From a virus: a stretch of 64,000 nucleotides of DNA. The notes under the pieces were generated by a model. That model made no database searches. It was not told the DNA's origin and saw nothing but the letters and a program-made list of their open reading frames with translations. The position numbers and the translations under genes are program-made. The stretch is taken from positions 116,826-180,825 of the IMG/VR virus record IMGVR_UViG_3300009008_000005; one strand, written 5' to 3'. This document shows positions 590 to 62,599 of this stretch, piece by piece; within the stretch, counting starts at the first letter, position 1, and each line of letters starts with the position of its first letter.

Positions 590-596
590 TATAAGA
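590..596 (+). promoter_or_regulatory. TATAAGA phage promoter box with no following gene
   Basis: CCAGGTATAAGAGAA here is almost the same as CCAGGTATAAGAAAA at 4291. No ORF with a ribosome-binding site follows, so this promoter probably makes a non-coding RNA ending at the hairpin at 773-800. Confidence 0.45.
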
Positions 597-827: not shown

Positions 828-833
828 ATAAGA
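828..833 (+). promoter_or_regulatory. ATAAGA-type phage promoter box
   Basis: AAAAAGAGATAAGAATAG lies about 36 nt upstream of the kinase-like gene's ATG at 869, directly after the terminator at 773-800. Same box as the other plus-strand units. Confidence 0.4.
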
Positions 834-3246: not shown

Positions 3247-3252
3247 ATAAGA
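3247..3252 (+). promoter_or_regulatory. ATAAGA-type phage promoter box
   Basis: GGGCATAAGAAAGG starts 4 nt after palindrome copy 1 and 33 nt before the ATG at 3280. Confidence 0.4.
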
Positions 3253-4294: not shown

Positions 4295-4301
4295 TATAAG
4301 A
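4295..4301 (+). promoter_or_regulatory. TATAAGA phage promoter box
   Basis: CCAGGTATAAGAAAA lies between a terminator and the ATG at 4328. It is the cleanest example of the recurrent box and matches the one at 590 at 14 of 15 positions. Confidence 0.55.
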
Positions 4302-7172: not shown

Positions 7173-7193
7173 AATAAACCTCCATAGAACATC

Positions 7194-9010: not shown

Positions 9011-9016
9011 ATAAGA
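9011..9016 (+). promoter_or_regulatory. ATAAGA-type phage promoter box
   Basis: GAGGCATAAGACAAG lies 40 nt before the ATG at 9051 and forms a divergent pair with the minus-strand box at 8861-8867. Confidence 0.4.
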
Positions 9017-9050
9017 CAAGTGCGGGTAGAATAGACGCTCGGAGGTGCAC

Positions 9051-9320: not shown

Positions 9321-9350
9321 TCCTGAGCCGTTACACCCAAGGAGGTTAGT

Positions 9351-10202: not shown

Positions 10203-10205
10203 GCC

Positions 10206-10841: not shown

Positions 10842-10865
10842 TACAAATCCAAGTACTTTTCTCGT

Positions 10866-10872
10866 TATAAGA
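10866..10872 (+). promoter_or_regulatory. TATAAGA phage promoter box
   Basis: CTCGTTATAAGAAGATTG lies about 80 nt before the ubiquitin-like gene, giving it its own transcript with a leader of some 70 nt. Confidence 0.45.
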
Positions 10873-10948
10873 AGATTGAATCCTGGGCCACTAGTTGGTG
10901 GTCCGTGTGCACGGATTTGCCATAACTATCCTCTCAAGGAGGGAACAT

Positions 10949-11161: not shown

Positions 11162-11199
11162 GGGGACCATACTCGTCTCGCTCCGATGAAGGAACATGT

Positions 11200-11227
11200 G
11201 GGGGAGGGGGGTTCGCCTCCCTCCCCC
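11200..11227 (+). terminator. Strong hairpin after the ubiquitin-like gene
   Basis: Twelve-bp stem (11200-11211 with 11216-11227, loop TTCG), followed by TAAGTTTCTC. It separates the modifier's transcript from the operon downstream. Confidence 0.75.
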
Positions 11228-11304
11228 TAAGTTTCTCCCTAAAAGTATACCCATAAGTGGGATTATCTATATGTGTCTTGGGATGGATGGACAAGGAGGC
11301 AAGA

Positions 11305-15501: not shown

Positions 15502-15508
15502 TATAAGA
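15502..15508 (+). promoter_or_regulatory. TATAAGA phage promoter box
   Basis: ATCGGTATAAGAGATATAG, 36 nt before the ATG at 15538 and 28 nt after palindrome copy 2. Confidence 0.5.
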
Positions 15509-17577: not shown

Positions 17578-18525
17578 ATGGCGGAGAAGGCAAAAATGCC
17601 AGCCGAGGCTAAGAAGATCGAGATCCCGTTCGACTCCATCGAACTGGACAAGTACGGCCTGCGTAACAGCAGGTCTGCAATTCCCAACACGGACAAGCTC
17701 CGGGCCTCCATCGAGGCGTTCGGTCTGCTCGTCCCAATGGTCGTGTGGAAGCCCCCAGGAAAGGATTCCTACGTCCTGTGCTGCGGGTACCTGCGACACA
17801 AGGCGATCACAGAAATCCGGTCCAAGGATGCAAAGCAGTACGAGACCATCGGAGTCTCCCTGCTGGACGGTGTTCCCCTCAACGACGCACTCTGCGTCAA
17901 CCTCGAAGAGAACATCAAGAGGGAGACCCTCAACCACGCAGACCTCGCAGCCCGCATGTTCCTCCTGAACCACGGGCGCAAGATGAGCGAGACTGCCATC
18001 GCCGACAAGCTCAACGTGTCCCAGGGGTACGTAGCACGCCTCATCGGCGTGCACATGAACTGCATCGACGAAGTGCTCCAGGCTCTCCGTGAAGGCCTCA
18101 TCTCCGTGCAGCGTGCAAAAGAGCTGGCCACCCTGGATCCGGAAGAGCAGCTCACCCACCTGGAGAAGCTGCTAGACCCGGAGAAGGCCGAGGAGTTCCG
18201 GAAGAGGCTGGCCAAGAAGGTCGGGCACTCTCGTCCAGGTATCAAGGTTATCCAGGCGCAGATCAAGCAGCTGGAGAAGTACGAGGGGGACCAGGATGTT
18301 GGCTATCGGCGTGGTGCTCTCGCTGCGCTCCGCTTCTCCTTGGGTACAGCCGAGGAAATACTCCTCTTCCACCCGCCTGAGTCTGCATCAGGGTCTGCCT
18401 TGAAGAAGACCATGAAGAAGCCTGACAAGAAGAAGGTCGCCGAGAAGAAGTTCCCGACCAAGAAGGAAACAAAGAAGAAGTCTGCGAAGAAGAAGAAGCT
18501 GGTCACGAAGAGGAGCAAGTCCTAG
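17578..18525 (+). CDS. ParB-like protein (315 aa)
   Basis: N-terminal ParB/sulfiredoxin fold with box CGYLRHKA at 69-76 (equivalent to GERRxRA) and ENIKR at 111-115, the CTP-binding boxes of ParB. A helix-turn-helix at about 135-157 (ETAIADKLNVSQGYVARLI) follows, then a helical domain and a very Lys-rich tail (about 278-315). ParB proteins bind palindromic parS sites and slide as CTP-gated clamps; KorB relatives repress transcription. No ParA/ParM partner is in the window. ParB-related proteins define PRTRC cassettes, so the conjugation genes upstream may belong with it. TAGGAGGG precedes the ATG. Confidence 0.85.
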   Translation: MAEKAKMPAEAKKIEIPFDSIELDKYGLRNSRSAIPNTDKLRASIEAFGLLVPMVVWKPPGKDSYVLCCGYLRHKAITEIRSKDAKQYETIGVSLLDGVPLNDALCVNLEENIKRETLNHADLAARMFLLNHGRKMSETAIADKLNVSQGYVARLIGVHMNCIDEVLQALREGLISVQRAKELATLDPEEQLTHLEKLLDPEKAEEFRKRLAKKVGHSRPGIKVIQAQIKQLEKYEGDQDVGYRRGALAALRFSLGTAEEILLFHPPESASGSALKKTMKKPDKKKVAEKKFPTKKETKKKSAKKKKLVTKRSKS

Positions 18526-32846: not shown

Positions 32847-33977
32847 CTAGTAAAGGGTGATCTGCGGGTACGTATACCCATCATAGGCCTGGTTGTTCAC
32901 CGCACCGAGGTCTTCCTCAGCACCAGGTGCAACCTCATCAGCGTATCCAGCAAGATCGTAGCCAGTGGTGTCACCGGAGATCAGCTCCAGGCGGCAGACG
33001 GCTGCGATGTTGGCGAGACCCATGCCGATGTTCTCCCAACCCCAGAAGGAGATCTTCCGTGCTTCCTTCTTCACCCAGAACTTCACGTTGTCCAGGATGT
33101 AGGAACGCCCGAAGAACTCGGGGGAGGTGAAGCCGTAGATCAGGGAGTCGTTGAGAACGTCGCCCTTCAGGGAGGTGACGATCTTGTATCCAAGTACGGT
33201 GTTGTACTTGTAACCCTGAACCATGACCTCTCCGGTCAGCTTCTCGCCGAGGTCGGCGGAGGTGAGCTGTCCGAAGTCCTGGAAGGTGTGCTCAGTCATG
33301 AGGACACGGTCCAGGCGCAGAGCCTTACCTGCACGGGTGAACAGCTTCGAGAGACGGCCAATGTCCTGCCTCTGGAGAGGATGGACTTCGTCGTCATCTG
33401 CGACTGCTGCACGGGCCAGCTCGCCCTTCGCAATGGAATCCTCGACCACGAGACCGGCCTGGATGTCCGAAGCACGAAGAGGGATCGCACCGTTGGTGAG
33501 GGTGTGCTTCTGCACGACGGCGGAGTTCACGTGGAGCAGGAAGTAGCGATCCTCGACCGCCTGGATGTCCTTTACCACGTTGTTCTTGATCACGTCAGTG
33601 ATCGGGTAGGTGTAAGTCCGAAGCTCCTCAGTGAAGCCTTCCCACTTCAGCGAGCTGATGGTGTGGAAGGTGACCGCCATGCGGGGTCCCTTGATGAGCT
33701 TGGGGTCGGGCTCGCCACGGAACGAGATCGACATTGCGTACGAGCCGGGCTCGATGTCGACGATCTTGTAGACCGTGTCGTGCTCAAGAGACCGCTGGCA
33801 CTCGGCCACGGTGACGCCCTTCGGGGGAAGAATCTTCCGTGCGAAGGACAGTTCCTTGAGCTTATCCCGGATATAAGCAGCACCGGCCGCAGCCAGCTTC
33901 TCACGGTCATCAGGGCTGTCTGCCTTGTTGACGAAAAGCTCGTTGAGGACGTTAGCGGGCATGTTCTGGAAACTCAT
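32847..33977 (-). CDS. Major capsid protein, HK97-like (376 aa)
   Basis: The C-terminal region FWGWENIGMGLANIAAVCRLEL has the A-domain pattern of HK97-fold capsid proteins, and an N-terminal helical arm with REKLAAAGA leads into a strand-rich P-domain-like middle. Length is typical of an unprocessed or lightly processed subunit. It has TAAGGAGG at ideal spacing and lies between the scaffold/protease block and the neck genes. A GC hairpin follows. Assembles the icosahedral head shell. Confidence 0.7.
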   Translation of the reverse strand: MSFQNMPANVLNELFVNKADSPDDREKLAAAGAAYIRDKLKELSFARKILPPKGVTVAECQRSLEHDTVYKIVDIEPGSYAMSISFRGEPDPKLIKGPRMAVTFHTISSLKWEGFTEELRTYTYPITDVIKNNVVKDIQAVEDRYFLLHVNSAVVQKHTLTNGAIPLRASDIQAGLVVEDSIAKGELARAAVADDDEVHPLQRQDIGRLSKLFTRAGKALRLDRVLMTEHTFQDFGQLTSADLGEKLTGEVMVQGYKYNTVLGYKIVTSLKGDVLNDSLIYGFTSPEFFGRSYILDNVKFWVKKEARKISFWGWENIGMGLANIAAVCRLELISGDTTGYDLAGYADEVAPGAEEDLGAVNNQAYDGYTYPQITLY

Positions 33978-42008: not shown

Positions 42009-43670
42009 TCAAGACGGCACCCTTTGCTGGTTCTGTGCGAACTCTACACTTCCGTGTAGCAGGTCCGGTCTTGGCCACTTCACCATGCTACCTACGAGGC
42101 AGTACAGAGCGGAGTGGAAGGAATCATCGGTAGCATTCAGCTCTCGATTGTACATGAGCACTCTTCGGGTTTCGTGCCACTCACTGGTAATAGCCAGGAT
42201 GTCATCGCCGAAGGGCTCTTGGAACTCGTCCCACCTAGGGAAGTTCACCTCGTTGTGCTTGATTGCAGAGAAGAGCATGCTCATAAGCTCCGACCTCTGC
42301 ATCAAGAATCGGCCCAGTTTGTTCTCCCAGCGGATGAAGTCATTCACATCAGCGTACTGGTACTTCACGATCCGGTTAGCACCGAACTCCCGCTGTAGCT
42401 CGTCGTTCTGCTCGAAGCCACCACCATAGTCGCAGCCCACGACATCCAGGTTGAACCTACGAATGAGGTTCTTCACACCAGACATCCTACGCCGAGGCTC
42501 AGCCTCACGACCGGTGAACCTCTTGAAGTAGACGTAGGTGAACTTCCCGTTGATGTACGTCGCCACGGACATGACCGTGTAGCTGTTCTCGGCAGTTCCC
42601 CAGTCGATCCCACCAAAGGTTGGGTTGTGGACGCTATACGTGTCCAGCCATGCGGGGTTGAAGGGAATGTCTTTGTTGTACATGGACACGGTGGGGCTAC
42701 ACACGGCCTGCAGTTCCGCAGTAGTGATGGGCTTGGTCCCAATATCGTACGGTCTCGCTAGGACCTCGTTCACGAAGCGGTGCCTTGGGTACCGGGCCCT
42801 CTTGTCCAGCATGTCAGCCCAGACAACCATGGGAGTAATCATCTGCGGGATCCGGTAACCCTCGAATGGGATAGGAACCTTCGGCTTAGGATTCCTGGAG
42901 ACCCACTGGGCATCCTTATGGTCGGGGTTGATCAGCTCCCCGCACTTCGCACAAGACAGACCCTTCTCCCCGATGTTGTGCTCATCAGGTATATTCCAGA
43001 ATCTATAGCCAGCCTTCTTGCTCCCGCATGCATCGCAGGGAATCGCCCACTCGTTCTGGGTAGAAGACTTCGTCCAGACCTGAGCGATAGTGTTCGTGTG
43101 GGTCAGCGGTGTACCTGCGTACCTCATCACCTTATGCTTTGAGGTGAACAGGGTCTCCTCGATAACCGGGAGGAGATCCAGGAGCATGTCCTGAAGTTCG
43201 TCCACGGCCAGCATGTCAGCCATCTTTCCACGAATGGAGTCTGCGTTCAGGTAGGCAGATGCAATCCTAAGGTTCGACCCACTAGCGAACTCCTTGTAGT
43301 AGGTATTGTCGTTCGCTCCCCAGTTACTCTGGAACTGCTTGAGAATGTCGGAGTATGCGATGGGCTGCTTGATGCGGTCACGGCTGAAGGTCTGTGCCTG
43401 GTTCTGCCTTGGAGCTACATAGATAGCCTGGAAGAAGGGACGGAGGATTAGGTTCACGAGCATGATGTTGCCTAGGCTCGTTGACTTGTGTACCTGCCGT
43501 CCACAGAGGAGGAGAACACGGGAAGCAATCGTATCGTAGATCTGGTAGAGGTAGCGGCAGTCGGCAATAGAGAAGCGTTCAAGGCCCTCACGACCGGGAA
43601 TCTGGAATACAGACTCCACGAACTTTGAGGGTGTTACCTCTACTCGCTTTTCTAGTTTGGCTGCTTGCAT
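42009..43670 (-). CDS. terL: Terminase large subunit (553 aa)
   Basis: ATPase: Walker A-like CGRQVHKST at 56-64, Walker B LAVDE at 154-158 and motif C AGTP at 185-188. A zinc ribbon is inserted between the domains (C212, C215, C240, C243), as in GpA-like terminases. RNase H-like nuclease: Asp356 (GGIDWGT), Asp414 (GCDYGG) and a C-terminal TDDSFHSALY. The enzyme drives DNA into the prohead and cuts it. The start codon directly abuts palindrome copy 6 and no ribosome-binding site is within reach, so initiation may be controlled or coupled. No small subunit was recognised. Confidence 0.9.
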   Translation of the reverse strand: MQAAKLEKRVEVTPSKFVESVFQIPGREGLERFSIADCRYLYQIYDTIASRVLLLCGRQVHKSTSLGNIMLVNLILRPFFQAIYVAPRQNQAQTFSRDRIKQPIAYSDILKQFQSNWGANDNTYYKEFASGSNLRIASAYLNADSIRGKMADMLAVDELQDMLLDLLPVIEETLFTSKHKVMRYAGTPLTHTNTIAQVWTKSSTQNEWAIPCDACGSKKAGYRFWNIPDEHNIGEKGLSCAKCGELINPDHKDAQWVSRNPKPKVPIPFEGYRIPQMITPMVVWADMLDKRARYPRHRFVNEVLARPYDIGTKPITTAELQAVCSPTVSMYNKDIPFNPAWLDTYSVHNPTFGGIDWGTAENSYTVMSVATYINGKFTYVYFKRFTGREAEPRRRMSGVKNLIRRFNLDVVGCDYGGGFEQNDELQREFGANRIVKYQYADVNDFIRWENKLGRFLMQRSELMSMLFSAIKHNEVNFPRWDEFQEPFGDDILAITSEWHETRRVLMYNRELNATDDSFHSALYCLVGSMVKWPRPDLLHGSVEFAQNQQRVPS

Positions 43671-43686: not shown

Positions 43687-44553
43687 CTAGCCCTTCCCTG
43701 GAGCAGCCTGTTGCTGCGGTGGGGGTGGGATGTTACCTGGGCGAGCAGGTCCTGAGCCAGTCATACCAGTGTTACCGGTATTCATGGTCTTGTTTGCCGC
43801 CTGCATCGGGGCCTTAGGTGGAGGGGGAACAGAAGGTTTTTCTGTGTAGGCCTTCTGCGCATCCCCGGACACCTGACTGGACATTCCGCCGTAGGTATAG
43901 GCGTACTTTGCCTTGAAGACATCATTGTAGAACCTGTGCTGATCCCTGGAACCGGCCCTACCCATTTGGACCTTCATGTGAGGGCGCTTGGAGCCACGAG
44001 TAAACTGGTCCATGTCCCGTGTGTAGCCTTTGGTCTTGAATAGCTTGCGGAAGAACCCCTTAGGCTTACCTTCACGTCGGAAGGCTAGAGTAGCGAAGTC
44101 ATCAGGGTGCTTCGTCTTGTACTTCTTCCGCACGGACTGGAGGGTAGCTCCCTTTTCTCCTAGTAGAGACTGGAGGTACTTCTTCTTCCCTGTAGTGGCC
44201 GGGTCTTTATCTGTTCCAATGAACAGGCCACCGGATGTAGTACGGATATCGTTCTTGTCCCTGCGCTTGAATATCCTACCTCCCTTGCGGGTGACTACGA
44301 GGTCTGCGATCTTCCGTAGGCTAGCCATCTTCGTCTGACTGAAGGGCTTCATCTTTGGGACCGCCGGAGGAGGAGCCATTGGAGCCACACCAGGATTTAC
44401 GTTTGGTACGGATGGGGGCGGGGCTTTGGGACCGGCCCCGGCACCCGGGACTTTGATACCTGCGGGCGCTGCACCAATCCCTTTTGGTGGGGCTGGGGGC
44501 TTGACGGGCTTGAAGGTTGCCGCCGCAACTTTGAGCCAATGTTCTTTAACCAT
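43687..44553 (-). CDS. Pro-rich/basic virion-type protein (288 aa)
   Basis: Starts within the helicase gene (157-nt overlap, different frame) with GAGG upstream. WLKVAAA near residue 6 and LRKIADL near 79 are K-x-A motifs. Residues 18-70 and 245-288 are Pro/Gly/Ala-rich; the centre (80-230) is basic with KKYLQSLLGEKG and YTRDMDQFTRGSK segments. No recognised fold. Likely a virion or packaging protein. Confidence 0.5.
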   Translation of the reverse strand: MVKEHWLKVAAATFKPVKPPAPPKGIGAAPAGIKVPGAGAGPKAPPPSVPNVNPGVAPMAPPPAVPKMKPFSQTKMASLRKIADLVVTRKGGRIFKRRDKNDIRTTSGGLFIGTDKDPATTGKKKYLQSLLGEKGATLQSVRKKYKTKHPDDFATLAFRREGKPKGFFRKLFKTKGYTRDMDQFTRGSKRPHMKVQMGRAGSRDQHRFYNDVFKAKYAYTYGGMSSQVSGDAQKAYTEKPSVPPPPKAPMQAANKTMNTGNTGMTGSGPARPGNIPPPPQQQAAPGKG

Positions 44554-46256
44554 TGTTTGAATCCTCTGGGTTTCTTAGCCGGGGCTATCCCAGGTCTCTT
44601 GAACCCAGGCTTATCCGGATACTTGTAGCGCCACTCGCCTGTAGCCGGATCCCGCCACTTCCTTTCGTACTTATGCATTCGCTTCGGGCTAGGCAGAGCC
44701 AATACACCCTTGCGTAGTTGCTTGTTGAGAATGTGCTTCCTCTTCGCCACGTCATAGATCCACTGGTCCACTGTGGCCTTAGGCTTACCGAAGAACTTCT
44801 TCGGATAGACTGACTGGTACCTGTAGACCTCTACCTTCCTGGCCTCTTGCGGGCGATGAGCCTGCCCCTTCATGCGGACGGCCCTTGCCTCAGCCTGGAG
44901 GATCCTCTCAGGGTTCCAATGACCATCCATGGAGAAGAAGCCTGTAGCATTCTTCAGGTCTAATCCCTCTGCACCTGCTCCGGAGATGAGGAGGATCTTC
45001 GACTTCCCGGCCTGGAAGTCCTTCACTGCCTTGGCCCTAGCCTTATGGCTTGAGACCTGACCTCCCACCTCTCTTCCAGACCCTGCGAACACACCGAACT
45101 TCAGACCCTTCTGCTTGAGGGCCTCAGCGGCTACGTCGAGTCCACCCGTGATCAGGTTGCTGTAGATCACAACCTTCCCATCCGGAGTCCGCTGCATATG
45201 GTCGTCCAGGTCCGCCATCATCTTCTGGACCTTGGGAGTCTGCTGGGCAGCAGTTCTCTTGGTGATCTTAGGGTTGATGGCGGAGAGATCGTTCATTGCA
45301 CGGCGGGCGTGGATGATCCTACCGAAGACATGCTGGAGCTGCTTCGGGGTGAGGTCTGTCTTCCTCTGCGCTACAATGTCGGAGAGCGGCCCAAGCTGAC
45401 GCATCACGTAGTCGTAATACATCCTCTGCTCTTTGGACATCGGGACCTTGACGGTCTTCACATCCTTCTTCGGGAACAGGTCCTTGATGGACTCCTTGGG
45501 CTGGTAGTCCACCACAGGCTTAATGTAGGCAGCGGCCTCAGGCCTACGGACCATCGTCACCTGCTTCTTCTTTCCACCGAAGAAGCTGGGTGTGTATCCC
45601 GTCTGCCGCATGTACCGACGCTTGAATCGGGATGCTCCCATGAACTGCCCGTTCGTGGCGATGTTCACGAGGGTTCCGATCTCAGCTGGGTTGTTGTTCA
45701 CCGGAGAGGCTGTCATCCCAATGAAGTTTCGAGCGTACTGTCTTGCACCCAGAGCTGCCTGGTGGATCTTCGCACGCTCGTTGCGGACCTTGTGGAACTC
45801 ATCGAAGAGTAGGGTATCGGCCCCGGCCCTCTTCAGGATACCAACAGGATCCTTCAGGAACATCTCGTAGGAGATGATGGTGTAGTCCTTACCGGGCTGA
45901 ATGCTGTCGAGGTACACGATCTCATCTTTGTCGCTCTTCCTAGACTCACTCTTAGACCCAATGATCTGGAAGCTGGCTGTGGTGAACTTCTTCACCCCAC
46001 CGTGGGCAAAGTTCGACTTCAGTCCAGAGGGGACTACTACGACAGCTCGCTTTGCCATACCCTTCGCCTTGGCGGCTTCCACGGAGAATAAAGCTGTAGC
46101 TGTCTTCCCGGTACCTGTGGCATGTGCGAGGATGAGCTGGCCAGAGTTCGTGAACTTGTCTACAGCCTTCTGCTGATGGGGATAGGGCTGGAACTTTGGA
46201 CGTAGCTCCGCTGTCTTCAGGAGACTACGTAGGAACATGTTTACAGAGTCGTCCAC
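44397..46256 (-). CDS. SNF2-type superfamily 2 helicase (619 aa)
   Basis: Motif I HATGTGKT at 45-52, motif II DEFH at 152-155, motif III-like MTASP, and motif VI QAEARAVRMKGQ near 460 define an SF2 helicase of the SNF2/DEAH-like group. Residues 1-20 carry LLKTA, the K-x-A motif of the structural proteins. Start is GTG 46256 abutting the upstream stop; ATG 46238 is the alternative. The C-terminal 60 residues are Pro/Arg/Lys-rich and overlap the next gene. Its place among head genes suggests a DNA translocase used in the virion or early after entry; not proven. Confidence 0.8.
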   Translation of the reverse strand: MDDSVNMFLRSLLKTAELRPKFQPYPHQQKAVDKFTNSGQLILAHATGTGKTATALFSVEAAKAKGMAKRAVVVVPSGLKSNFAHGGVKKFTTASFQIIGSKSESRKSDKDEIVYLDSIQPGKDYTIISYEMFLKDPVGILKRAGADTLLFDEFHKVRNERAKIHQAALGARQYARNFIGMTASPVNNNPAEIGTLVNIATNGQFMGASRFKRRYMRQTGYTPSFFGGKKKQVTMVRRPEAAAYIKPVVDYQPKESIKDLFPKKDVKTVKVPMSKEQRMYYDYVMRQLGPLSDIVAQRKTDLTPKQLQHVFGRIIHARRAMNDLSAINPKITKRTAAQQTPKVQKMMADLDDHMQRTPDGKVVIYSNLITGGLDVAAEALKQKGLKFGVFAGSGREVGGQVSSHKARAKAVKDFQAGKSKILLISGAGAEGLDLKNATGFFSMDGHWNPERILQAEARAVRMKGQAHRPQEARKVEVYRYQSVYPKKFFGKPKATVDQWIYDVAKRKHILNKQLRKGVLALPSPKRMHKYERKWRDPATGEWRYKYPDKPGFKRPGIAPAKKPRGFKQWLKNIGSKLRRQPSSPSSPQPHQKGLVQRPQVSKSRVPGPVPKPRPHPYQT

Positions 46257-52414: not shown

Positions 52415-53584
52415 CTATTTTGTCTTCACTGCATCTGACAATAACGACGGAGGGGGCGGAGAACACTTCGCTCCGACAGCTAGTAGGGACAAGTACGCCA
52501 TTAAAGCATTTCCCTTGACCAACGGTTCCATCGCTCCGACACCCCCCAATTTTAGTTGTGGTGCGTCGATGTTGCAAACTGACCGAGATTTTATGGACAG
52601 GGAAGAAGATGCCGCTAAGAGCAGTTGAGCCGCTTCTACAATCAGATTCCCCGCTTCGTCACCCTTGAGAGCGCCCAGGGCACCGAATTCTATGTTGAAG
52701 CCCTTAGTGAGGTGGGCATAGGCGTGTCTACCCTCCCAGTGGAGGCTACCAGTGATCTTCTGGAAGATGTTACCCAACGAGTCAATCTGGAATACGTAGG
52801 TGGCCCCTGTGTTTTCCGGGTCCACACAAATCGACAGCCGTGTGGTCTCCCTAGGCTTGTTCGTGATGTACTCTGTGGCGAGGTCCTTGGTGAAGGGCTT
52901 GTCCTTTAGGTTCCCGAACAACTCCTGCTGCTGTGCACCGAACTCCGGGTCACCCACACGCCCCGCACGCACGTTTACCGTAAGGAAATCATTCTCCACT
53001 AGGTCCTTGGTTCCCCAGTGGAGGCAGGCCGTCGTATCACCATCATCTGTCTTGATCTTCCCATGCTTCCAGACGATGTCCCCCAATAGGGACCTGCCCT
53101 CGTAGTTCTGGTAGAACTGCCTGATCAGGTTGTCCAAGGGGAAGTACATGGTTTGGGCTATAGGGGAGGCACCTACCTGTACTGTGCCTCCCTTCCGGAG
53201 GGTGACGAAAGCGCCCTTCCCATTGTACAGAGCGATGTCGCCAGGAGATAGGAGGGGCCGACCAGCTAAGTAGTCCTCTTCAGATTCCCCGTCCTTACCT
53301 GTGGACCCAGCCTTGGGTGGAGCTACCCATGAACCGATGAAAGGAGAAGTTCCGTCAGATGGGTAGAACAGATAACAGTCAGAACCCACCTCCGGGCAGA
53401 AGTCGATAGCCGTCCCGCTCTCCACGTTCAGATAGGCTGCTCCGCAGGCTAGCTCGGGTACTACCTGGGAATCTGTATCCGTGTGTACGTCTACAGTCCT
53501 GCGCCCGGGATGTACTTTCGTGACAGTACCTCGGACCATGCGGCCTGCACGACCCGAGGAAGCTCGCTTAGCCTGTCCAGACAT
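52415..53584 (-). CDS. Baseplate spike, gpV/gp5-like (389 aa)
   Basis: Residues 15-85 form an OB-fold as in phage spike proteins (GTVTKVHPGRRTVDVHTD ... GSDCYLFYPSDGTSPFIG). A strand-rich body and a C-terminal segment (VKGNALMAYLSLLA) typical of gpV/gp5 needle proteins follow. The spike sits at the tip of the tail tube and pierces the cell envelope. Start overlaps the RNA polymerase stop (TAATG), which is an odd partner for a spike gene. Confidence 0.65.
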   Translation of the reverse strand: MSGQAKRASSGRAGRMVRGTVTKVHPGRRTVDVHTDTDSQVVPELACGAAYLNVESGTAIDFCPEVGSDCYLFYPSDGTSPFIGSWVAPPKAGSTGKDGESEEDYLAGRPLLSPGDIALYNGKGAFVTLRKGGTVQVGASPIAQTMYFPLDNLIRQFYQNYEGRSLLGDIVWKHGKIKTDDGDTTACLHWGTKDLVENDFLTVNVRAGRVGDPEFGAQQQELFGNLKDKPFTKDLATEYITNKPRETTRLSICVDPENTGATYVFQIDSLGNIFQKITGSLHWEGRHAYAHLTKGFNIEFGALGALKGDEAGNLIVEAAQLLLAASSSLSIKSRSVCNIDAPQLKLGGVGAMEPLVKGNALMAYLSLLAVGAKCSPPPPSLLSDAVKTK

Positions 53585-56500
53585 TAGTACCCCTCGCCCA
53601 GAGGCTTCGTACCGAATTCCTTCCCGTATACCAGGGAGGGGATCGGGTGCATACCATGCAGATTCGAGGACTGCCGGATTGCCGCTGCGTCCTGGACTGT
53701 ATCACGGAGACGGGCGTAGACCATCTTAGCCAACCAGTCATCGTGGATGTCGAGAGGTAGTGTGGTGGTTCCCCGGAGGATAGGTTTGTACTTGACCGGC
53801 TTCGCACCCTTGGGCCTCTTTCCGTTCCACTCCTCCATCTGAGAGATCCTAGCTGTGTCCCCCTTGAGGAGGTTATCGTCTCCACCCGGATCCTGGACCC
53901 GGGCGGTGTTCGTGAGGGCCTTTACGATGACCTCCATGTGCCGCCTTTTGATTCCATAAGGATCATAGATCTTTCCCATCTCGTCAGTGAGGTACTTCTG
54001 CACCGTAGGGAGATTCGTGAGTTCCAGAAGCTCGTGAGGATTGATCAGCCCATGCGATATCTGCTGGCCCTTGGTCACCTTCGAGCCGACCTTGACATCC
54101 AGACCACGGTTCTGGGGTACGTAGTGCTGAGTATCTCCAACACCTACATCCCACCCACCAACGGGACTCTTCTTGATGGAGGTCACCTTCCCGGAGTCTC
54201 TGGCTAGGACTGCTGAGTTCGGGATGTTCTTGGGTAGCTGTACGATCTGGCGTAGACGACTCATTGCGTCCACGATTCCACCGCCCTTACCAGTGTGGAA
54301 AACCCGCATGGTCAGCTGAGCTGCACGCTCCCCCACGGCCTGAGTAGCATGGATACCCACGTTCGTTCCCATCGGAGCAGCATTCGCTCCTGCGTGAACC
54401 CCGTAGCACTTCTGACACACCCCGTTAGCTACACGGCACTTCAGGGGGCTACGTACCACGACGCCAGTAACCTTGGATGCCTTCAGCTTGGAAAGAGTGT
54501 CCGTGGTGATGAGCGTGTTCGATTTGATCGTCTGGCCCGACCGCAGCTTGATGGATACAGCAGTATACCTGTCGAGTAGGGAGTTGTTGGTGGTGGGGAG
54601 CATGATCCCCTTAGGGGTCTTGCAGTCCGGGGAGGAGATGATAATGTCCATCGTGGACTTACCGAGCTGTTTCGTGATTGCGCCCGGGTCCCTGACCTCC
54701 TGCGTCTTAGCGATGATACCTCGCCGAACACCAGGTGCAGACATCCAGTAGTCGGCCATGGATAGACCATCACCATAGCTACCTGTTACAGCCGGAGTAG
54801 CTGGGGAGCCTGTCGGATCCTGCACCAGCATACGAGCTAAAATGATCTGCTCGATCTGTGTCCAGGAGGGCTTCACGCCAGCCTGGGACATGATGTATAG
54901 CGCCGTGTCCTTCTTCTTGAGGATAGGCATAGCCTCCCGTTCCATGATGGCACTAGCATCCTCATAGAGCTTCAGCATAGCCTTGTGCTTTGCGTCCTTG
55001 GAGAGATTCTTGTTCTCCTGGATCTTACGGACCTTCGGCTCCACAGCGGCCAGGGCCTTGTTACGGATACCCTTCAGCGGCTCGAAGTCCGTTAGCTTGT
55101 AAGAGAACCCTACCTTGTGGACATGACCGAACCCCAGGTCCTTGAGTACCTGTGCGGTCTGGACGTATAGCTGGGGCTTCTCCGTGGCTATGTGCTGGAG
55201 CAGCTTGTTCACACCACCCTTGTTCAAGGACCAGTCTGCCTTGTTGGACAACAGTGCGGAGGCTTCCTTCGGGAGCTTCTGTTTCAGTAGCTCACGCCCA
55301 GCGGTAGTCCGAAGCTTGCCGATACCCACCTGCGTGTCCCAAGGGATCTTTCCGTTATCGGCGTCCTCGATCAAGTCATCAGACGAGGAGTATTTCGTTG
55401 AAATACTGTTCTTCTTCACCCTGGACAGGAGATACAGACCTACGAGGCTTTCCATCGTAGGGGTGTGGATAATGGCATCAGATGCAGGGTTGATTAGGTT
55501 ACGGCTGGGCATCAACCCATAAGCTTCCTTCACAGCTTCCTTGGATACAGGCACGAACAGAGCTACCTGGTCACCATCGAAGTCTGCGTTGAACCCCGAG
55601 GTAACCAAGGGATGAATGTGGATCTCCTTGTCACCCATGATCCGCACATTGAAGGCCATGATCCCGAACTTGTGGAGAACAGGATCCCGCTTCATCAGGA
55701 CAGGGCGCTCCTTCAGGACCTCCTTCATGGCTAGCTTCGCATGCTCCGACTTGGCAATGATGGACTCCCTTGCTTCCAATGGCCGCATCCCACCAAGGAC
55801 CATCTTCTGTTGGATGAAGGGACGGAACAGCTCCAAGGCTACGTCTTCAGGTAGGCCCACATCGTCTAGCTGCAGAGTCTGGTCGGGAACAATGATCCCA
55901 CGGGCCGTCATGTCCTGCTTCCTCTTGACGAGCTTCGTCATGAAGTAACCGGACTTGGGCTGTGGTCCTGCGATGATGTTGAGGATACCCTTCACCTGTG
56001 GTGAGGGTTCCTTCAATCCGGACAGGGCCCGCATGCCGTCATAGACTTCCTTCCGCAGGCGGGCTCTCTGGCTCTCGGGCATCTCTGGAGGAAGGTCCTT
56101 CAACTGCTGGTTACTCAATCCAAACTCTCTGTAGAGCTGATTGAGGTCTCCACGGCTAAGGTTCCCGTCATCTAAGACGGAGATCGGGCGTAGCTTAGGC
56201 GGAAGTACTAGCTGCTTATCGAGCATGTAGACCGTTGCGTCTACCTCCCCACGTACTAAGGCCCTAAGGTACTTAGCACGCTTGTTCAGCTTGTTGAGCT
56301 GGTCACCCTCTGTGTTGTTCAGCTCATCTACTGCGGCCTTCAACTCCTCCTTGGGGTTGATCTGTCCCAAGAGTTTCTTGATCGACTCTGGGCCCCTGAC
56401 TACAGGGTCTTCATCTGTGATCTTGCCTTCCTTGTTCAGGCCTACCTCACCAGTCAGGAGCTTTTCGTAGGTGGACTGGGTTATACCAAGGAGAGACTTG

Positions 56501-59500
56501 ATCGCTCGTTCGAAGACAGGGTTCGGGAAGGTCTCGGCTAGTGCGATGTGGCCGAAGTTCCTACCCCCAATACCACCTGTGACATCCTCATCGAACAATC
56601 CATTCTTCTCTGCCCGTAGATCCTTGGCCCTAAGCATACGACCCGGGTCCTTGATCTCTCCGTTCGAGATGTTGCTGATCTGCTTATCCGTGAATGGGAA
56701 GATAACAAGAGTATCATCCTCCCGCTCCACCCCAAGCCCCAAAGCCTCCAAGTACTTCACGAACTTGTCGAAGGCACTAGGTATCCTGGGTGGCGGTAAG
56801 GGCTGTCCCATCTGCACAGCCATCCAGATGTCATCTTGTGCAGAGTCCGCCTTGAAGGTCTGCATCTCTCGGAGGTTATGGATAGCCCCGTGGGCGAGCA
56901 TGCCGTAGATACCCAGCTCCCCCATGCGCTGTGCACCGTGCTTACCCCCACCACGGGGCTCTCCATCCAAAGTATACTCGTACCCCGGTCCCCAGGACCT
57001 GACTGCCATCTTCTTATCAGCCTGGTGCACCAGCTTCAGAATATACTGCTTACCTGTGAGGACCTGTCCCAGAGACTTCCCGGTCTGCGGGTCGAAGAGT
57101 TCCTCCGTCTCCGACAGCCCACGTTCCTTCAGCTTGTCCTGGACAACGGATAGGTAATCCCTCTCGTACTTGTAGGGTGCTACCCAGATCTTCTTTTTGT
57201 CCTCTCCACCCTTACCGGTGTTGACCACACGCCAGTGGCCCTTCACCTTCACGATCCGCTTGTTCCGATCCGACTCGAAGTTCCGGATGGCTACAGGGGA
57301 CTTCTCCTCTTCCGCAACATGAGAGATCGAAGTCTCCAGGACCTGCCCCACGTTCATACGACCGCCCACACCCTGAGGGTTGTGGATGATCTCGATGGCG
57401 TTCCCGTCCTTGTCCTGGGGCATCTCGTCATCTGGAAGGACTCCTGAGATGACACCCTTGTTGCCGTGGCGACCGGAGAGCTTGTCACCTGCCTTGGCAG
57501 GCTCCTCTGTTCGGATGTGTACGTGAACATCGTTCCCGATCTTGTTCACGCTAACGACCTTTCCTTCCACAGTGGAGTTCCAGGTTAGAGACTTGTCGGA
57601 ATACTCGCTGACCAGACTCTTGTGGACACCACGAAGGAGGGCTTTCTCTGGAGTCAGCTCCGCCTTCTTGGCTGTGGCCACCAGGATCTCCCCAGGTGAC
57701 ACGGTCTCTCCCACCTTCACCACACCCGTTGCGTCCAGCTTTTCCTCATTGGCAGGAGTCAGCTTCGCAGGGTAGAGCATCTTGTACTTCTTCCTGCTGT
57801 TGATGGACTCCTTCGGATCGATTGTGACAGAGGGCTTGTACATGTGAATGGAGGTCATCTTCTTAGCTGCGGTCTCAGAGATGAGGACCCCATCCTCGAA
57901 GGTCAGCCCCTTGTACGGGAGGTAGGCAATGCGGAGGTTCTTACCGAGCGCAAGCACTCCGTCCTTTGTATAGTTCGTATCAGCAACAGCCGCCCCACGG
58001 GTTACCTTGTCCCCCTTGGATACAGTGGCCTCCGACTGGAGGAACATGCTGACACCATTCAGTGGGAAGTTGTTGTACAGGTGGACGGGGTGATTCTTCC
58101 CCGTCTTGTCCTTGATCACGATTTTGTCTTTGGTGACGGAAGACACAGTACCTGACACGGGAGCTACGTGCCCTGCGATTGCGGCCCAGCGCTTCTCTAG
58201 CGTAGGAGCATTATCTCCAGTCTGAGACTGGACCTGCACAAGAGGGGCTTCACGATGCTTCAGCGGGATGGCCTGCTCCATGTGGCGAGCTGCCATCTCG
58301 ATACGTGTTCCGTCGTCATTGGACAAGAAGGGTACTAGGTTCGTAGACGAAGAGAAAAGCATGCTCGGGGAGGGGAGGATGTAGTCCACGTCCTTCGCAT
58401 CGACCGTAGCCTTCAGAGATTCCGGGGTCTGGGCATGGACGGCATTGGCTACAGGGGTGAAGTTCCCGTCCTTGTACTTGTACTGGTCTGGGAAGGCCAC
58501 TACTGACTTTGACAACTTCGCAGGGGACACCATGTCCAGCTTCTTGGACTTGGTGTTGAACATGGGTACCTTTACTTCCTGTCCGTCCTTATGGACACCC
58601 CACGCTAGGCGGAGGGTAATACCTGAGCGCTCTCCCTCAGGGGTATGCACAGGGTCTAACACACCAAGGTGAGAGGAGTGGACTGCCTTTGCATCCTCTG
58701 TCACACCGAAGGGACCACTGATACCACCAACCCCTTCACCAACCAGTGTCGTCTCGGTGAACCTAGATACCCAGTCCAGCGGATTGATTTGTTGGGTCTG
58801 GTTGGAGATCGATGACGACCGGAAGAAGGCATGGATGGGCTTGGTGAACACGTCGGAAGCAATGATGTCCCTTACACTGTCTCTACGGTCTAGACGGTTC
58901 AGGACCTTTCTACGAATCGCCGTCTTGGACCTATCGAGCCTGTCTGCTGCCAGGTCATCTACGCCCAGGAGGGACTTGAATTGGATAGCGTCACGGAAGT
59001 CGGGCTCTACCTCTCCCCGGTGAATACCCAGCAGCTTCTTGGATGCGACTAGTAGAGCCTCGTTGTTCACTGTGGCGAAGGGCTTTCCTAGGGTAAGTGC
59101 GGTGGTGTCCTCACGGATCTCGGTTTGAGCGAACCTCTCACGTATAGCCTTGGTAACACCCTCTTCCGTCTCCGGGACCGTGTCGCCCAATGAAGTAAGG
59201 AGCTTCCTCCCGTCCTTCATAGGCTTGGATACCTTCTTTGCGTTCTCCAACATCCCAGCGCCCCAGGCCTTCTGGATGTCTTCGTCCTCTGCGCCCATCA
59301 TCTTGAGTAGAGAGTATAGAGGTACCCTTGCGGACTCATACTTCAAGAGGAAAGTTTTCTTCTTAGGGTCGAGGATCAGATGGAAGCCCCTGCGGTTGAA
59401 GCCCTCCGCCAGGTTGAATTGTGTCTCTGGGTTACCCGTAGCTGCGATTCGGGAGTAGGCTCCGGACTTCAAGCGCCACAGATGTGAAACCTGTCGCTCC

Positions 59501-59820
59501 GAACCACCGACGATGAAACTGTACCTTCGAGTAAGACCTGGTACAGAGGCTAGTCGGATGCCCTTGACCTTGTCGAGAACCTTACCTGTGGCCTTGTCCT
59601 TGAGTACCACATCTCCCTTCACAGCCACGGACCAGGTTCGACCAGTGTTCTTCGCCGTAGTTTGGCTTGGAATATCGTCTACTGCCTTGGGATCTTCTGT
59701 AGTCAGATTCGAGACTTCCAGGGTGTGCTTCTTACCTTCGAAGGGAAAGAAGGACCCAATTTTGTGGGCGACCTTCTTCTGCAGATCGTCCATAAGGGAC
59801 TCAGGATTTAGAACCAGCAT
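53584..59820 (-). CDS. Single-chain fused beta/beta-prime RNA polymerase (2078 aa)
   Basis: Beta part (about residues 1-1040): HSSHLGVLDPVHTPEG at 381-396, GRHGNKGVIS at 783-792, GVGGRMNVGQVLE near 820 and GAQRMGELG near 962. Beta-prime part (about 1046-2078): SNGEIKDPGRMLR, KRKQDMTARGIIVPD, catalytic NADFDGDQ at 1411-1418 (Asp 1413, 1415, 1417), CRVANGVCQKCYG, and QAVGERAAQLTMRVFHTG. All main catalytic motifs of both large subunits are in one chain. The N-terminal zinc-binding domain of beta-prime (CxCGK...CxxC) is absent, and the total is about 670 aa shorter than the E. coli pair. ATG 59820 follows GGGAGGAACC. No alpha, omega or sigma is in the window. A sigma70-like promoter lies upstream. 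Confidence 0.95.
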   Translation of the reverse strand: MLVLNPESLMDDLQKKVAHKIGSFFPFEGKKHTLEVSNLTTEDPKAVDDIPSQTTAKNTGRTWSVAVKGDVVLKDKATGKVLDKVKGIRLASVPGLTRRYSFIVGGSERQVSHLWRLKSGAYSRIAATGNPETQFNLAEGFNRRGFHLILDPKKKTFLLKYESARVPLYSLLKMMGAEDEDIQKAWGAGMLENAKKVSKPMKDGRKLLTSLGDTVPETEEGVTKAIRERFAQTEIREDTTALTLGKPFATVNNEALLVASKKLLGIHRGEVEPDFRDAIQFKSLLGVDDLAADRLDRSKTAIRRKVLNRLDRRDSVRDIIASDVFTKPIHAFFRSSSISNQTQQINPLDWVSRFTETTLVGEGVGGISGPFGVTEDAKAVHSSHLGVLDPVHTPEGERSGITLRLAWGVHKDGQEVKVPMFNTKSKKLDMVSPAKLSKSVVAFPDQYKYKDGNFTPVANAVHAQTPESLKATVDAKDVDYILPSPSMLFSSSTNLVPFLSNDDGTRIEMAARHMEQAIPLKHREAPLVQVQSQTGDNAPTLEKRWAAIAGHVAPVSGTVSSVTKDKIVIKDKTGKNHPVHLYNNFPLNGVSMFLQSEATVSKGDKVTRGAAVADTNYTKDGVLALGKNLRIAYLPYKGLTFEDGVLISETAAKKMTSIHMYKPSVTIDPKESINSRKKYKMLYPAKLTPANEEKLDATGVVKVGETVSPGEILVATAKKAELTPEKALLRGVHKSLVSEYSDKSLTWNSTVEGKVVSVNKIGNDVHVHIRTEEPAKAGDKLSGRHGNKGVISGVLPDDEMPQDKDGNAIEIIHNPQGVGGRMNVGQVLETSISHVAEEEKSPVAIRNFESDRNKRIVKVKGHWRVVNTGKGGEDKKKIWVAPYKYERDYLSVVQDKLKERGLSETEELFDPQTGKSLGQVLTGKQYILKLVHQADKKMAVRSWGPGYEYTLDGEPRGGGKHGAQRMGELGIYGMLAHGAIHNLREMQTFKADSAQDDIWMAVQMGQPLPPPRIPSAFDKFVKYLEALGLGVEREDDTLVIFPFTDKQISNISNGEIKDPGRMLRAKDLRAEKNGLFDEDVTGGIGGRNFGHIALAETFPNPVFERAIKSLLGITQSTYEKLLTGEVGLNKEGKITDEDPVVRGPESIKKLLGQINPKEELKAAVDELNNTEGDQLNKLNKRAKYLRALVRGEVDATVYMLDKQLVLPPKLRPISVLDDGNLSRGDLNQLYREFGLSNQQLKDLPPEMPESQRARLRKEVYDGMRALSGLKEPSPQVKGILNIIAGPQPKSGYFMTKLVKRKQDMTARGIIVPDQTLQLDDVGLPEDVALELFRPFIQQKMVLGGMRPLEARESIIAKSEHAKLAMKEVLKERPVLMKRDPVLHKFGIMAFNVRIMGDKEIHIHPLVTSGFNADFDGDQVALFVPVSKEAVKEAYGLMPSRNLINPASDAIIHTPTMESLVGLYLLSRVKKNSISTKYSSSDDLIEDADNGKIPWDTQVGIGKLRTTAGRELLKQKLPKEASALLSNKADWSLNKGGVNKLLQHIATEKPQLYVQTAQVLKDLGFGHVHKVGFSYKLTDFEPLKGIRNKALAAVEPKVRKIQENKNLSKDAKHKAMLKLYEDASAIMEREAMPILKKKDTALYIMSQAGVKPSWTQIEQIILARMLVQDPTGSPATPAVTGSYGDGLSMADYWMSAPGVRRGIIAKTQEVRDPGAITKQLGKSTMDIIISSPDCKTPKGIMLPTTNNSLLDRYTAVSIKLRSGQTIKSNTLITTDTLSKLKASKVTGVVVRSPLKCRVANGVCQKCYGVHAGANAAPMGTNVGIHATQAVGERAAQLTMRVFHTGKGGGIVDAMSRLRQIVQLPKNIPNSAVLARDSGKVTSIKKSPVGGWDVGVGDTQHYVPQNRGLDVKVGSKVTKGQQISHGLINPHELLELTNLPTVQKYLTDEMGKIYDPYGIKRRHMEVIVKALTNTARVQDPGGDDNLLKGDTARISQMEEWNGKRPKGAKPVKYKPILRGTTTLPLDIHDDWLAKMVYARLRDTVQDAAAIRQSSNLHGMHPIPSLVYGKEFGTKPLGEGY
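55390..55406. repeat. 17-bp palindrome, copy 7 (GTATTTC-GTT-GAAATAC)
   Basis: Perfect 7-bp arms, inside the polymerase gene where it encodes ISTKY. No start codon nearby. Confidence 0.6.
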
Positions 59821-59849
59821 GGTTCCTCCCATTGAGAAGACTCTTGTTT

Positions 59850-59879
59850 ATGATAGGAGACCCTCTCTCCGAGCGTCAA
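59850..59879 (-). promoter_or_regulatory. Sigma70-like promoter of the RNA polymerase gene
   Basis: On the minus strand TTGACG (59879-59874), an 18-nt spacer and TATCAT (59855-59850), about 30 nt before the ATG. It is the best host-type promoter seen in an intergenic region of this window, and differs from the TATAAGA boxes of other units. Confidence 0.6.
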
Positions 59880-59891
59880 CTCTTTAGCTGG

Positions 59892-59898
59892 TATAAGA
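59892..59898 (+). promoter_or_regulatory. TATAAGA phage promoter box
   Basis: AGCTGGTATAAGAGCC, divergent from the polymerase promoter, 50 nt upstream of the small ORF at 59948. Confidence 0.5.
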
Positions 59899-59947
59899 GC
59901 CTTGAAGCCTAGTCCCACATACCATAGGAGGTAAGAGTTGATCTAGG

Positions 59948-60097
59948 ATGCTGATTCTTGTAATGGATATCTTCAACGAGGACAGAAGGGATTCTCCGTT
60001 TGACATGTTCACGGATGATCTCTTTGCAGACCTGCCACCTGTGGATGATAATCAGGAGCAGGAAAAAGAGGACGAGAAGAACGAAGAAGAGAAATGA
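59948..60097 (+). CDS. Small acidic protein (49 aa)
   Basis: ATG 59948 to TGA 60097; the ribosome-binding site (GGAGG at 59928-59932) is 15 nt away, so use of ATG 59963 is possible. Product MLILVMDIFNEDRR... is extremely acidic in its second half (EDEKNEEEK). Located divergently from the polymerase gene behind a phage promoter box, with a tiny membrane-like ORF overlapping its end. Such acidic peptides may bind polymerase or mimic DNA, but nothing here proves it. Confidence 0.5.
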   Translation: MLILVMDIFNEDRRDSPFDMFTDDLFADLPPVDDNQEQEKEDEKNEEEK

Positions 60098-60580: not shown

Positions 60581-62599
60581 CTAAATATAACGACTACCCT
60601 CCGGAGAGGTACTGGGTCGTTGCTCCGGGAGGGGCTGTCCACCCTGTCCGGAAGCCTTAGCCACCTGATACTGGTGGATGAAGTGGAGGACTGCTGGGTA
60701 GATATCAGGACGCTGATCCCTAACCGTAGCCAGGTACTGCATACGCTGACCAGAGTCGAATGACATCAGGTTCGAGGCGATGGCCTGAGCTTCTTGATCC
60801 TGCGTAGGAGTCGTAGGGGCCATGGGTGCTTCTGGAGGCTGTTGGGCCTGAGGCTCACCCGTGAAAGGTGCACCCCTACCAGCCGTACCACCTTCAGGAG
60901 CCCTAGGAGGCTGAGGTGGCATGGGACCACCCGGAGCTTGCTGCATACCTGGTACCTGCTGCTCCTGCCCAGGAGGTGGCTGTCCCTCCTGACCAGGTTG
61001 TCCTTCCTGCCCAGGTTGAGGCGGAGGCTGTACACCCAGGGCCTGCATCCGCTCTTGCATAGCAGCCTGGGACTCAGCCTGGTATTTCGCCGAAATAATC
61101 CCAGCCTCGCCCTGCACCTCAGCTGCCTGTGTCTGCAGCTTGAGCTGGATCTCCCTCTCAGGTTCCAGCTCATTGAGGATCTGCTCAGACTCAGGCTTCC
61201 ACTCGTAGTCCCGGCTCTCCACCACGGTCTTCTTGGAGATGTACCGTGCCTGTGCGAGCTGGAAGTCGAAGGCAGCACGCTGAAGATCGTCAGCCATCTT
61301 GAAGGGCTTGAATTTCACCTTCACAGGTGGGATACCCAGGAACGAGGACACGCCACGAATGATGAACTTCAGGAACTGGGCCATGTCTTCCCGGTCCCCA
61401 ATGAATCCGTTCTCCAGAGTACGTAGGGATACGGAGGACCCAGAGTAGCTCAGGCCACCGAAGATGAACTCCGAAGGTACGCCTAGACCTGCGAGGATCT
61501 GATCCGCTACAAGGCGCATCTCCTGATGGAGCATGAGGGCTCTGCCCTGCCCACCAATAGACTGGTACCCGAGAGGATACGGAAGCACAGGCATGTAGTT
61601 CGGATCGTCACGCCACGTGCGTACCTCAGACTGTACCTGCTGCTCCCAGTCCAGAAGGTTGATCTGCGTATAGGGGTTGTCGATCTGCCCGGAGGCCTGA
61701 GGGAACAGGACCCGGAGCGGAACGATGTGATCTAGTGCGACTGCCTCCTGCGCTTTCTGCAGGATCCGGTAGTAGAAGCAGAGCTTGATGACGGGAGCGA
61801 TGTTCGGAACACCCCACCCTGAGTCATGCCTGGAGATACTGGACCGCTTCATGTGGAACAGAGAACCGGCCTTGAACGTGAGCCGCTTCTGATTTGCGAC
61901 AGCGTTCAGGAAGGACTGGGGTACCCGAGTGATGACATCCTTACGGCCCAGGGTAATGGCGTTCGCCAGAGCAGGTGGCATCGTGAAGAAGTACCGTGAC
62001 TCGTTGTTCTCCGGGTTGTGGTCGATGTCGATGTAGTTAGGGTTCCAGCGGACGAGGTTCAGGCCACGAGTCGAACGGATGTACTGGTCGTGGGCCTTCC
62101 CATTGCCGTGGAACTTACACTCAGGGCAGGTGTACAGGAACTTGTAGCCAGACCAGGTGTAATCCGTTCGGTCTGCAGGTACACGGGAATGACACTCCGG
62201 ACACTCCAGGACCTTGCGCATCGGATAGTGGATCGACACAAAGGCGTTGCCATAGGTCTTGTAGTCCAGGTTCATCTCTACGAGGAAGGACCTGATGTGG
62301 AAGACCTCATCGAACAAGTACTCATAAACGCTGTTGATGTAGTCGTTGTCACCGTGATAGATGAGGTCGGTAATGGGGTAGGAGGCCATCTTCGTAGTGG
62401 CAGCATGGATGAGAGGATCCATGATGGCGAAGTACTCACACCAGCGGAACATGTGCTTGATGCTGGTGGGCAGGTAGAGGTTCGTCACATCCGAGAAGAT
62501 GTTGGCGTAGGGCCCATACTCCTGGCTCCCCGCACGACTGTCGTAGGAGTCGAAGCGAAAGGCGGAGCCTGGAGCTAGGTCGTATCCACTGCTACTCAC
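60581..62599 (-). CDS. Portal protein (672 aa)
   Basis: Length and pattern are those of a portal: N-terminal helical region, GVPSEFIFGG and GSSVSLRTLENG in the stem/clip region, and a Gln/Pro/Gly-rich C-terminus. A zinc motif (C133/C136 and C158/C161) is extra. The C-terminal repeat includes GQEGQPGQEGQPPPG. The portal forms the vertex through which DNA enters and is the docking point for terminase. Codons near residue 506 coincide with palindrome copy 8. Confidence 0.8.
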   Translation of the reverse strand: MSSSGYDLAPGSAFRFDSYDSRAGSQEYGPYANIFSDVTNLYLPTSIKHMFRWCEYFAIMDPLIHAATTKMASYPITDLIYHGDNDYINSVYEYLFDEVFHIRSFLVEMNLDYKTYGNAFVSIHYPMRKVLECPECHSRVPADRTDYTWSGYKFLYTCPECKFHGNGKAHDQYIRSTRGLNLVRWNPNYIDIDHNPENNESRYFFTMPPALANAITLGRKDVITRVPQSFLNAVANQKRLTFKAGSLFHMKRSSISRHDSGWGVPNIAPVIKLCFYYRILQKAQEAVALDHIVPLRVLFPQASGQIDNPYTQINLLDWEQQVQSEVRTWRDDPNYMPVLPYPLGYQSIGGQGRALMLHQEMRLVADQILAGLGVPSEFIFGGLSYSGSSVSLRTLENGFIGDREDMAQFLKFIIRGVSSFLGIPPVKVKFKPFKMADDLQRAAFDFQLAQARYISKKTVVESRDYEWKPESEQILNELEPEREIQLKLQTQAAEVQGEAGIISAKYQAESQAAMQERMQALGVQPPPQPGQEGQPGQEGQPPPGQEQQVPGMQQAPGGPMPPQPPRAPEGGTAGRGAPFTGEPQAQQPPEAPMAPTTPTQDQEAQAIASNLMSFDSGQRMQYLATVRDQRPDIYPAVLHFIHQYQVAKASGQGGQPLPEQRPSTSPEGSRYI
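61082..61098. repeat. 17-bp palindrome, copy 8 (GTATTTC-GCC-GAAATAA)
   Basis: Six of seven arm positions pair, inside the portal gene where it encodes ISAKY. Confidence 0.6.

What the first reader, a model, noticed from the sequence alone, without database searches (positions are those of the whole stretch)
59832..59950. Polymerase gene has a host-type promoter, others a TATAAGA box: possible transcriptional cascade
TTGACG-18-TATCAT lies before the polymerase gene, while at least ten other units start with G(T)ATAAGA and no good -35. A simple reading: host polymerase makes the phage enzyme, which reads TATAAGA promoters. The two promoters here face away from each other.
Basis: inference. Interest (0 to 1): 0.7.

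Follow-up and report, generated by a model that had tools for sequence, protein, structure and literature searches.

The report
Phage polymerase with two promoter classes
This virus carries its own single-chain bacterial-type RNA polymerase, and its genome uses two different start signals on opposite strands; relatives suggest the polymerase travels inside the virus particle to read one signal early, while its own gene is switched on with the structural genes by a host-type signal.

Summary
TTGACG-18-TATCAT precedes the polymerase gene, and a GGTATAAGA box 10 bp away faces the other way. Both exceed chance and are conserved. Genome-wide (180.8 kb phage) the box is GG(T/C)ATAAGAAnAGTGnACC: 30 strong sites against 0.3 in shuffles. 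The same motif appears independently in Salmonella phage Arash, Vibrio phage D69 and dozens of IMG/VR relatives, almost only on the strand opposite the polymerase gene.

The polymerase is one 2,078-aa chain fusing beta and beta'. The genome also encodes a sigma factor with regions 2 and 3 and no clear region 4, which suits a box without a -35. In Arash the polymerase and this sigma are abundant virion proteins, and here the polymerase gene sits among structural genes (portal, terminase, capsid). That the phage enzyme reads TATAAGA is plausible but unproven; nothing here measures transcription. A core polymerase plus a true sigma in one phage family, with two strand-segregated promoter classes, was not found described in the papers searched.

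The parts
53584..59820 (-). gene for a single-chain RNA polymerase, beta and beta' fused, 2078 aa, active-site motif NADFDGD at residue 1411
   Evidence: Pfam Rpb2_6 E 2.8e-53, Rpb1_2 E 2.3e-28, Rpb1_5 E 1.2e-18; motif; homologous end to end with Arash gp206+gp216 and D69 0261+0264
59874..59879 (-). -35 box TTGACG of the polymerase gene promoter
   Evidence: identical in L030; TTGNC-17/18-TANNNT upstream of 10 of 32 fused-polymerase relatives against 1.0% of random positions
59850..59855 (-). -10 box TATCAT of the polymerase gene promoter, 18 bp from the -35 box
59890..59910 (+). class A promoter GGTATAAGAGCCTTGAAGCCT facing away from the polymerase gene
   Evidence: matrix score 20.3; a divergent class A box lies upstream of the polymerase gene in 28 of 32 fused-polymerase relatives against 3.1% of random positions
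59948..60097 (+). small acidic ORF (49 aa) behind the divergent class A promoter; similar acidic ORFs in the same place in relatives
   Evidence: aromatic-hydrophobic motif in 13 of 19, shuffled mean 0.97, maximum 6 in 2000 shuffles
591..596 (+). class A box (score 13.6)
828..833 (+). class A box (score 28.4)
3247..3252 (+). class A box (score 23.8)
4296..4301 (+). class A box (score 23.0)
9011..9016 (+). class A box (score 13.0)
10867..10872 (+). class A box (score 20.6)
15503..15508 (+). class A box (score 18.2)
60581..62599 (-). portal protein gene, same strand and just upstream of the polymerase gene, as in Arash and D69
   Evidence: tblastn to Arash gp204 portal E 1.8e-81
44397..46256 (-). 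helicase gene matching Arash gp217 (a virion protein)
   Evidence: E 7e-46; phrog_62; virion list
42009..43670 (-). terminase large subunit gene, late block
   Evidence: phrog_675 E 2.5e-50
32847..33977 (-). major capsid protein gene, late block
   Evidence: Arash gp226 E 2.5e-27; phrog_2522

Best explanation
The phage uses two strand-segregated promoter classes read by different enzymes. Class A (GG-N-ATAAGAA-N-AGTG) is a -10-only promoter recognised by the phage's own fused beta-beta' polymerase with its own sigma factor; this holoenzyme is packaged in the virion and enters with the DNA, so class A genes (small and replication genes) come first. Class B precedes structural genes, including those of the polymerase and the sigma, and in this phage looks like a host sigma-70 promoter; it makes the next round of polymerase late, for packaging. 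The back-to-back overlap of A and B at the polymerase gene (10 bp apart), sigma operon (19 bp) and one other operon (3 bp) could let the phage holoenzyme occlude class B early. Shown from sequence: both classes, strand segregation, conservation, fused enzyme, sigma. Shown only in a relative (Arash): virion location. Inferred: which enzyme reads which class, the timing, the occlusion.
For: Class A: 30 sites at score >=14 against 0.33 in shuffles, mostly 31-43 nt before start codons. The same motif was found de novo in Arash (GGTATAAGtAAagTG) and D69 (TGtTATAAGaaAtATG). In 66 relative loci GTATAAG lies upstream of 63 genes on the strand opposite the polymerase (1.1 expected) and is almost absent on its strand; Fisher p 8.8e-6 in this genome and 0.002 to 0.04 in four more; no enrichment in stretches of three control phages with other multisubunit polymerases. 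The box has no T(-12) and no T(-7). Sigma at G000:41643-42491 with regions 2 and 3 and no clear region 4, found in 22 of 27 family records, the five without it being 107-134 kb and so probably incomplete. Arash virions: polymerase gp206 is the most detected protein (3516 spectra), with gp216 and sigma Gp10 (PMC10585845). Polymerase gene near portal, terminase, capsid. Class B. The class A strand carries DNA polymerase, helicases and a recombinase.
Against: No transcription or proteome data for this phage. The Arash authors allow that abundant enzymes may simply be left in purified virions. Class B in Arash and D69 is TAAAATA without a -35, not a host-type box, so host sigma-70 may not read class B across the family. 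Only about a third of the fused-polymerase relatives have a recognisable -35 before the polymerase gene. L109's sigma has a weak region-4-like match, so 'no region 4' is not certain. The replication operon at 1204-14350 has only a degenerate class A box (GGTATAAC).
Confidence: 0.6

Rival explanations
1. One reading: host sigma-70 polymerase transcribes the phage polymerase gene early, and the new enzyme then reads TATAAGA promoters (T7-like order).
For: A good sigma-70 type promoter stands right before the polymerase gene and is conserved; the sigma operon has one too.
Against: The polymerase gene lies in the structural block, the orthologue is a major virion protein in Arash, and the polymerase strand carries the late-type promoters in the relatives.
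Confidence: 0.15
2. The phage sigma reprogrammes the host core polymerase to read TATAAGA promoters, and the phage polymerase does something else (for example late transcription or DNA entry).
For: Phage sigmas that appropriate host core are common, and jumbo phages with sigmas usually lack their own polymerase (PMC7824862; PMC7598289).
Against: Sigma and polymerase are both virion proteins in Arash and co-occur through the family; a packaged polymerase would then have no early template.
Confidence: 0.12
3. The phage polymerase reads both classes, class A with the virion sigma and class B with another phage factor; the resemblance of class B to host promoters here is convergent.
For: Arash and D69 have a second sigma (gp196 / 0246), gp196 not named in the Arash paper, and a different late box TAAAATA.
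Against: No second sigma is detectable in this genome, and the -35 TTGACG at 18 bp is conserved with the nearest relative.
Confidence: 0.11
4. The TATAAGA boxes are chance AT-rich boxes in intergenic DNA, not promoters.
For: Intergenic DNA is AT-richer than genes.
Against: 30 against 0.33 in dinucleotide-preserving shuffles, fixed distance to start codons, strand segregation, independent rediscovery in relatives, absence in controls.
Confidence: 0.02

Closest known systems
Salmonella phage Arash (OQ632216) and Vibrio phages D69/D148/D181
   Same: homologous polymerase (31% identity), orthologous sigma, portal next to polymerase, same TATAAG promoter on the strand opposite the polymerase
   Different: their polymerase is split into about 1525 + 607 aa; they carry a second sigma; their late box is TAAAATA without a -35; the Arash paper does not mention promoters
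Bacteriophage N4 transcription programme
   Same: virion-delivered polymerase for early genes, host sigma-70 polymerase for late genes (PMC4496689)
   Different: N4 polymerases are T7-like, early promoters are hairpins (own knowledge), middle genes use a second phage polymerase; none of these is seen here
phiKZ / AR9 jumbo-phage multisubunit polymerases
   Same: phage-encoded relatives of cellular beta and beta' with a virion enzyme (PMC7598289)
   Different: those are split into several chains, come in two sets and do without a bona fide sigma; here one fused chain plus a region 2/3 sigma
Thermus phage P23-45 tail-tape-fused virion polymerase
   Same: a virion polymerase homologous to cellular enzymes starts the programme (PMC10770324, abstract)
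   Different: there it is fused to the tape measure protein and transcribes the gene of a second, non-virion polymerase

Membership tests
cellular-type (two-barrel) RNA polymerase | beta Rpb2_6 and beta' Rpb1_2 domains with the catalytic NADFDGD triad | tested here: met
   ADYDGD in Arash and D69
phiKZ/AR9-type jumbo phage polymerase | beta and beta' split into several polypeptides, no sigma-70 homologue | tested here: not met
   one 2078-aa chain; sigma present
sigma-70 family factor | regions 2 and 3 | tested here: met
   Sigma70_r2 just over its cut-off in the genome search (24.1 bits) but a little below it for the single protein (21.4 of 24); Sigma70_r3 24.6 bits here (cut-off 25.3) and above cut-off in orthologues; SigA/RpoS structures E 1e-14 to 1e-12 for the profile
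sigma-70 family factor | region 4 (-35 recognition) | tested here: inconclusive
   no Sigma70_r4 match in G000 at E <= 10; weak match (E 0.012) in L109's orthologue
virion RNA polymerase | packaged in the particle and injected | not testable with these tools
   shown only for the Arash orthologue by mass spectrometry (PMC10585845)
host sigma-70 promoter (before the polymerase gene) | two hexamers near TTGACA/TATAAT, 16-18 bp apart, beyond chance | tested here: met
   10/12 match, spacer 18; genome-wide excess; conserved in L030
host sigma-70 promoter (class A box) | T at -12, A at -11, T at -7 | tested here: not met
   -12 unconserved, -7 is G
N4-type cascade | virion polymerase early, host polymerase late | not testable with these tools
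   gene order and promoter classes agree but timing was not measured
   host-type promoter present, but the gene is in the structural block

The most novel reading that the evidence does not exclude
A family of about 180 kb phages packages a complete sigma-dependent, single-chain bacterial-type RNA polymerase holoenzyme, which starts infection from its own -10-only promoters, and hands over to the host polymerase for late genes through divergent, overlapping promoter pairs that act as a switch and regulate the polymerase's own gene, perhaps together with a small acidic protein encoded across from it.
Probability: 0.3. Interest if true: 0.8.

Novelty: new variant of a known kind. Interest (0 to 1): 0.62.

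Why it matters
Reviews treat jumbo phages as having either their own polymerase or their own sigma (PMC7598289, PMC7824862). Here one family has both, the polymerase being a single fused chain, with a conserved, easily scored promoter. That gives a compact sigma-dependent phage transcription system to rebuild in vitro, a test of how much of sigma is needed when the -35 is dispensed with, and a promoter-based way to assign early and late genes in dozens of unannotated metagenomic phages.

Tried and rejected
Near-identity DNA search in phages: no match. Single-sequence search for polymerase relatives in viral contigs: none; the three-row alignment gave 66. The idea that class B has the same TAAAATA box here as in Arash: rejected, 0 sites. 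The idea that the TATTTC-NNN-GAAATA palindrome is part of class A promoters: rejected as a general feature, only about five of 24 copies sit next to a box and it is absent in relatives. Second sigma in this genome: not detected. Several literature queries were malformed or empty. Early or late status is inferred from gene content; no expression data were available.

Full report
What was checked. The sequence at 59832-59950 was read on both strands. Minus strand: TTGACG (59879-59874), 18 bp, TATCAT (59855-59850), then GGGAGGAACC-ATG with the likely start codon at 59820. Plus strand: GGTATAAGA (59890-59898). The two boxes face away from each other, 10 bp apart. TATAAGA occurs 8 times in the window, 2.9 expected.

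The genome. The window is the last 64 kb of a 180,825-bp virus record. All of it was read through the loci and the window. The gene called 'polymerase' is one chain of 2078 aa in which beta (Rpb2 domains) and beta' (Rpb1 domains) are fused, with the catalytic motif NADFDGD. Its homologues in Salmonella phage Arash and Vibrio phage D69 are split into about 1525 and 607 aa. The best matches by tblastn among deposited phages are about 30% identical. In the window, as in Arash and D69, the portal gene lies just upstream on the same strand, and helicase, terminase and major capsid genes follow downstream. This is a late, structural neighbourhood.

Class A promoters. K-mers and expectation-maximisation on upstream regions gave GG(T/C)ATAAGAA-N-AGTG-N-ACC. 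At matrix score 14 or more there are 30 sites in the genome and 0.33 expected from shuffles. All but two are on the plus strand, most are intergenic, and the start codon usually follows 31-43 nt on. The box has no preferred base at -12 and G at -7, so it is not a host sigma-70 box. The same analysis run afresh on Arash and D69 returned GGTATAAGtAAagTG and TGtTATAAGaaAtATG. Pooling 66 IMG/VR loci that carry polymerase relatives, GTATAAG precedes 63 genes on the strand opposite the polymerase (1.1 expected) and almost none on its own strand. Five whole genomes show the same segregation (Fisher p 8.8e-6, 0.009, 0.002, 0.04, 0.007). Stretches of about 50 kb from three phages with other multisubunit polymerases show no enrichment. 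The class A strand of this genome carries DNA polymerase, helicases and a recombinase.

Class B promoters. On the polymerase strand, split-polymerase relatives use TAAAATA (38 regions against 0.8 expected in the pool). This genome has no TAAAATA upstream of genes; instead 6 upstream regions hold sigma-70 pairs at 10 of 12 or better against 0.97 +/- 1.05 in shuffles, five of them 19-29 nt before a start codon on the minus strand: polymerase, the sigma operon, and three others. Upstream of the polymerase gene, 28 of 32 fused-polymerase relatives have a divergent class A box (3.1% of random positions) and 10 have TTGNC-17/18-TANNNT (1.0% of random positions). Sigma-70 scores upstream of the polymerase gene exceed shuffles over 33 loci (Wilcoxon p 2e-5). 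Against the nearest relative (L030, polymerase 56% identical) the blocks CTTATACCAG, GTTGACGCT and TATCAT are preserved while most of the DNA between them is not.

The sigma. G000:41643-42491 (minus strand, outside the window) encodes a 282-aa sigma with regions 2 and 3; region 4 is not detectable here and weak in a relative. Orthologues occur in 22 of 27 family records; the five without are 107-134 kb and probably incomplete. The near-complete split-polymerase relatives have a second sigma, which is not detectable in this genome.

Virion evidence. In Arash, mass spectrometry found the polymerase gp206 as the most detected virion protein (3516 spectra), with gp216 (1210) and the sigma Gp10 (467); the second sigma gp196 is not named in the paper (PMC10585845). 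The authors note that abundance could also explain this.

Interpretation. The most economical reading is that the packaged holoenzyme reads class A at once and that structural genes, polymerase and sigma among them, follow later from class B. N4 works in this order with unrelated enzymes: virion polymerase early, host sigma-70 polymerase late (PMC4496689). Which enzyme reads which class, and when, is inference. Three class B promoters in this genome (polymerase, sigma operon, g47361) lie 3-19 bp from a class A or class A-like box facing away, so two bound polymerases would collide; mutual occlusion is a testable guess.

Limits. Gene calls are my own simple caller. The IMG/VR loci are partial and related to one another, so pooled counts are not independent events. 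No host was assigned.

Noticed in passing
window 3227, 15458, 17219, 31197, 37970, 43671, 55391, 61083 (24 copies in the 180.8-kb record): Exact dispersed palindrome TATTTC-NNN-GAAATA, 24 copies in genes and between them, none in four relatives. The window encodes a protein with a ParB-type helix-turn-helix (17578-18525) next to an AAA ATPase (18526-20163); parS-like or KorB-like sites are a guess.
   Followed up: partly
window 59948-60097 and the same place in about 18 relative loci: A small, mostly acidic ORF (30-62 aa) with a short aromatic-hydrophobic motif is encoded opposite the polymerase gene across the family; function unknown, possibly a polymerase-binding regulator.
   Followed up: partly
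record ends G000:1-72 and 180754-180825: The first 72 bases recur at the end of the record with one mismatch, suggesting a complete, circular or terminally redundant genome.
   Followed up: no
G001 (record of L030) 6410-6622 and G014 9320-9532: A second sigma region-2 match in two fused-polymerase relatives, in frames of about 200 aa, not seen in this genome.
   Followed up: no
G000 about 67.2 kb and 73-78 kb, outside the window: tRNA-like sequences in long intergenic stretches; the window itself has none.
   Followed up: no
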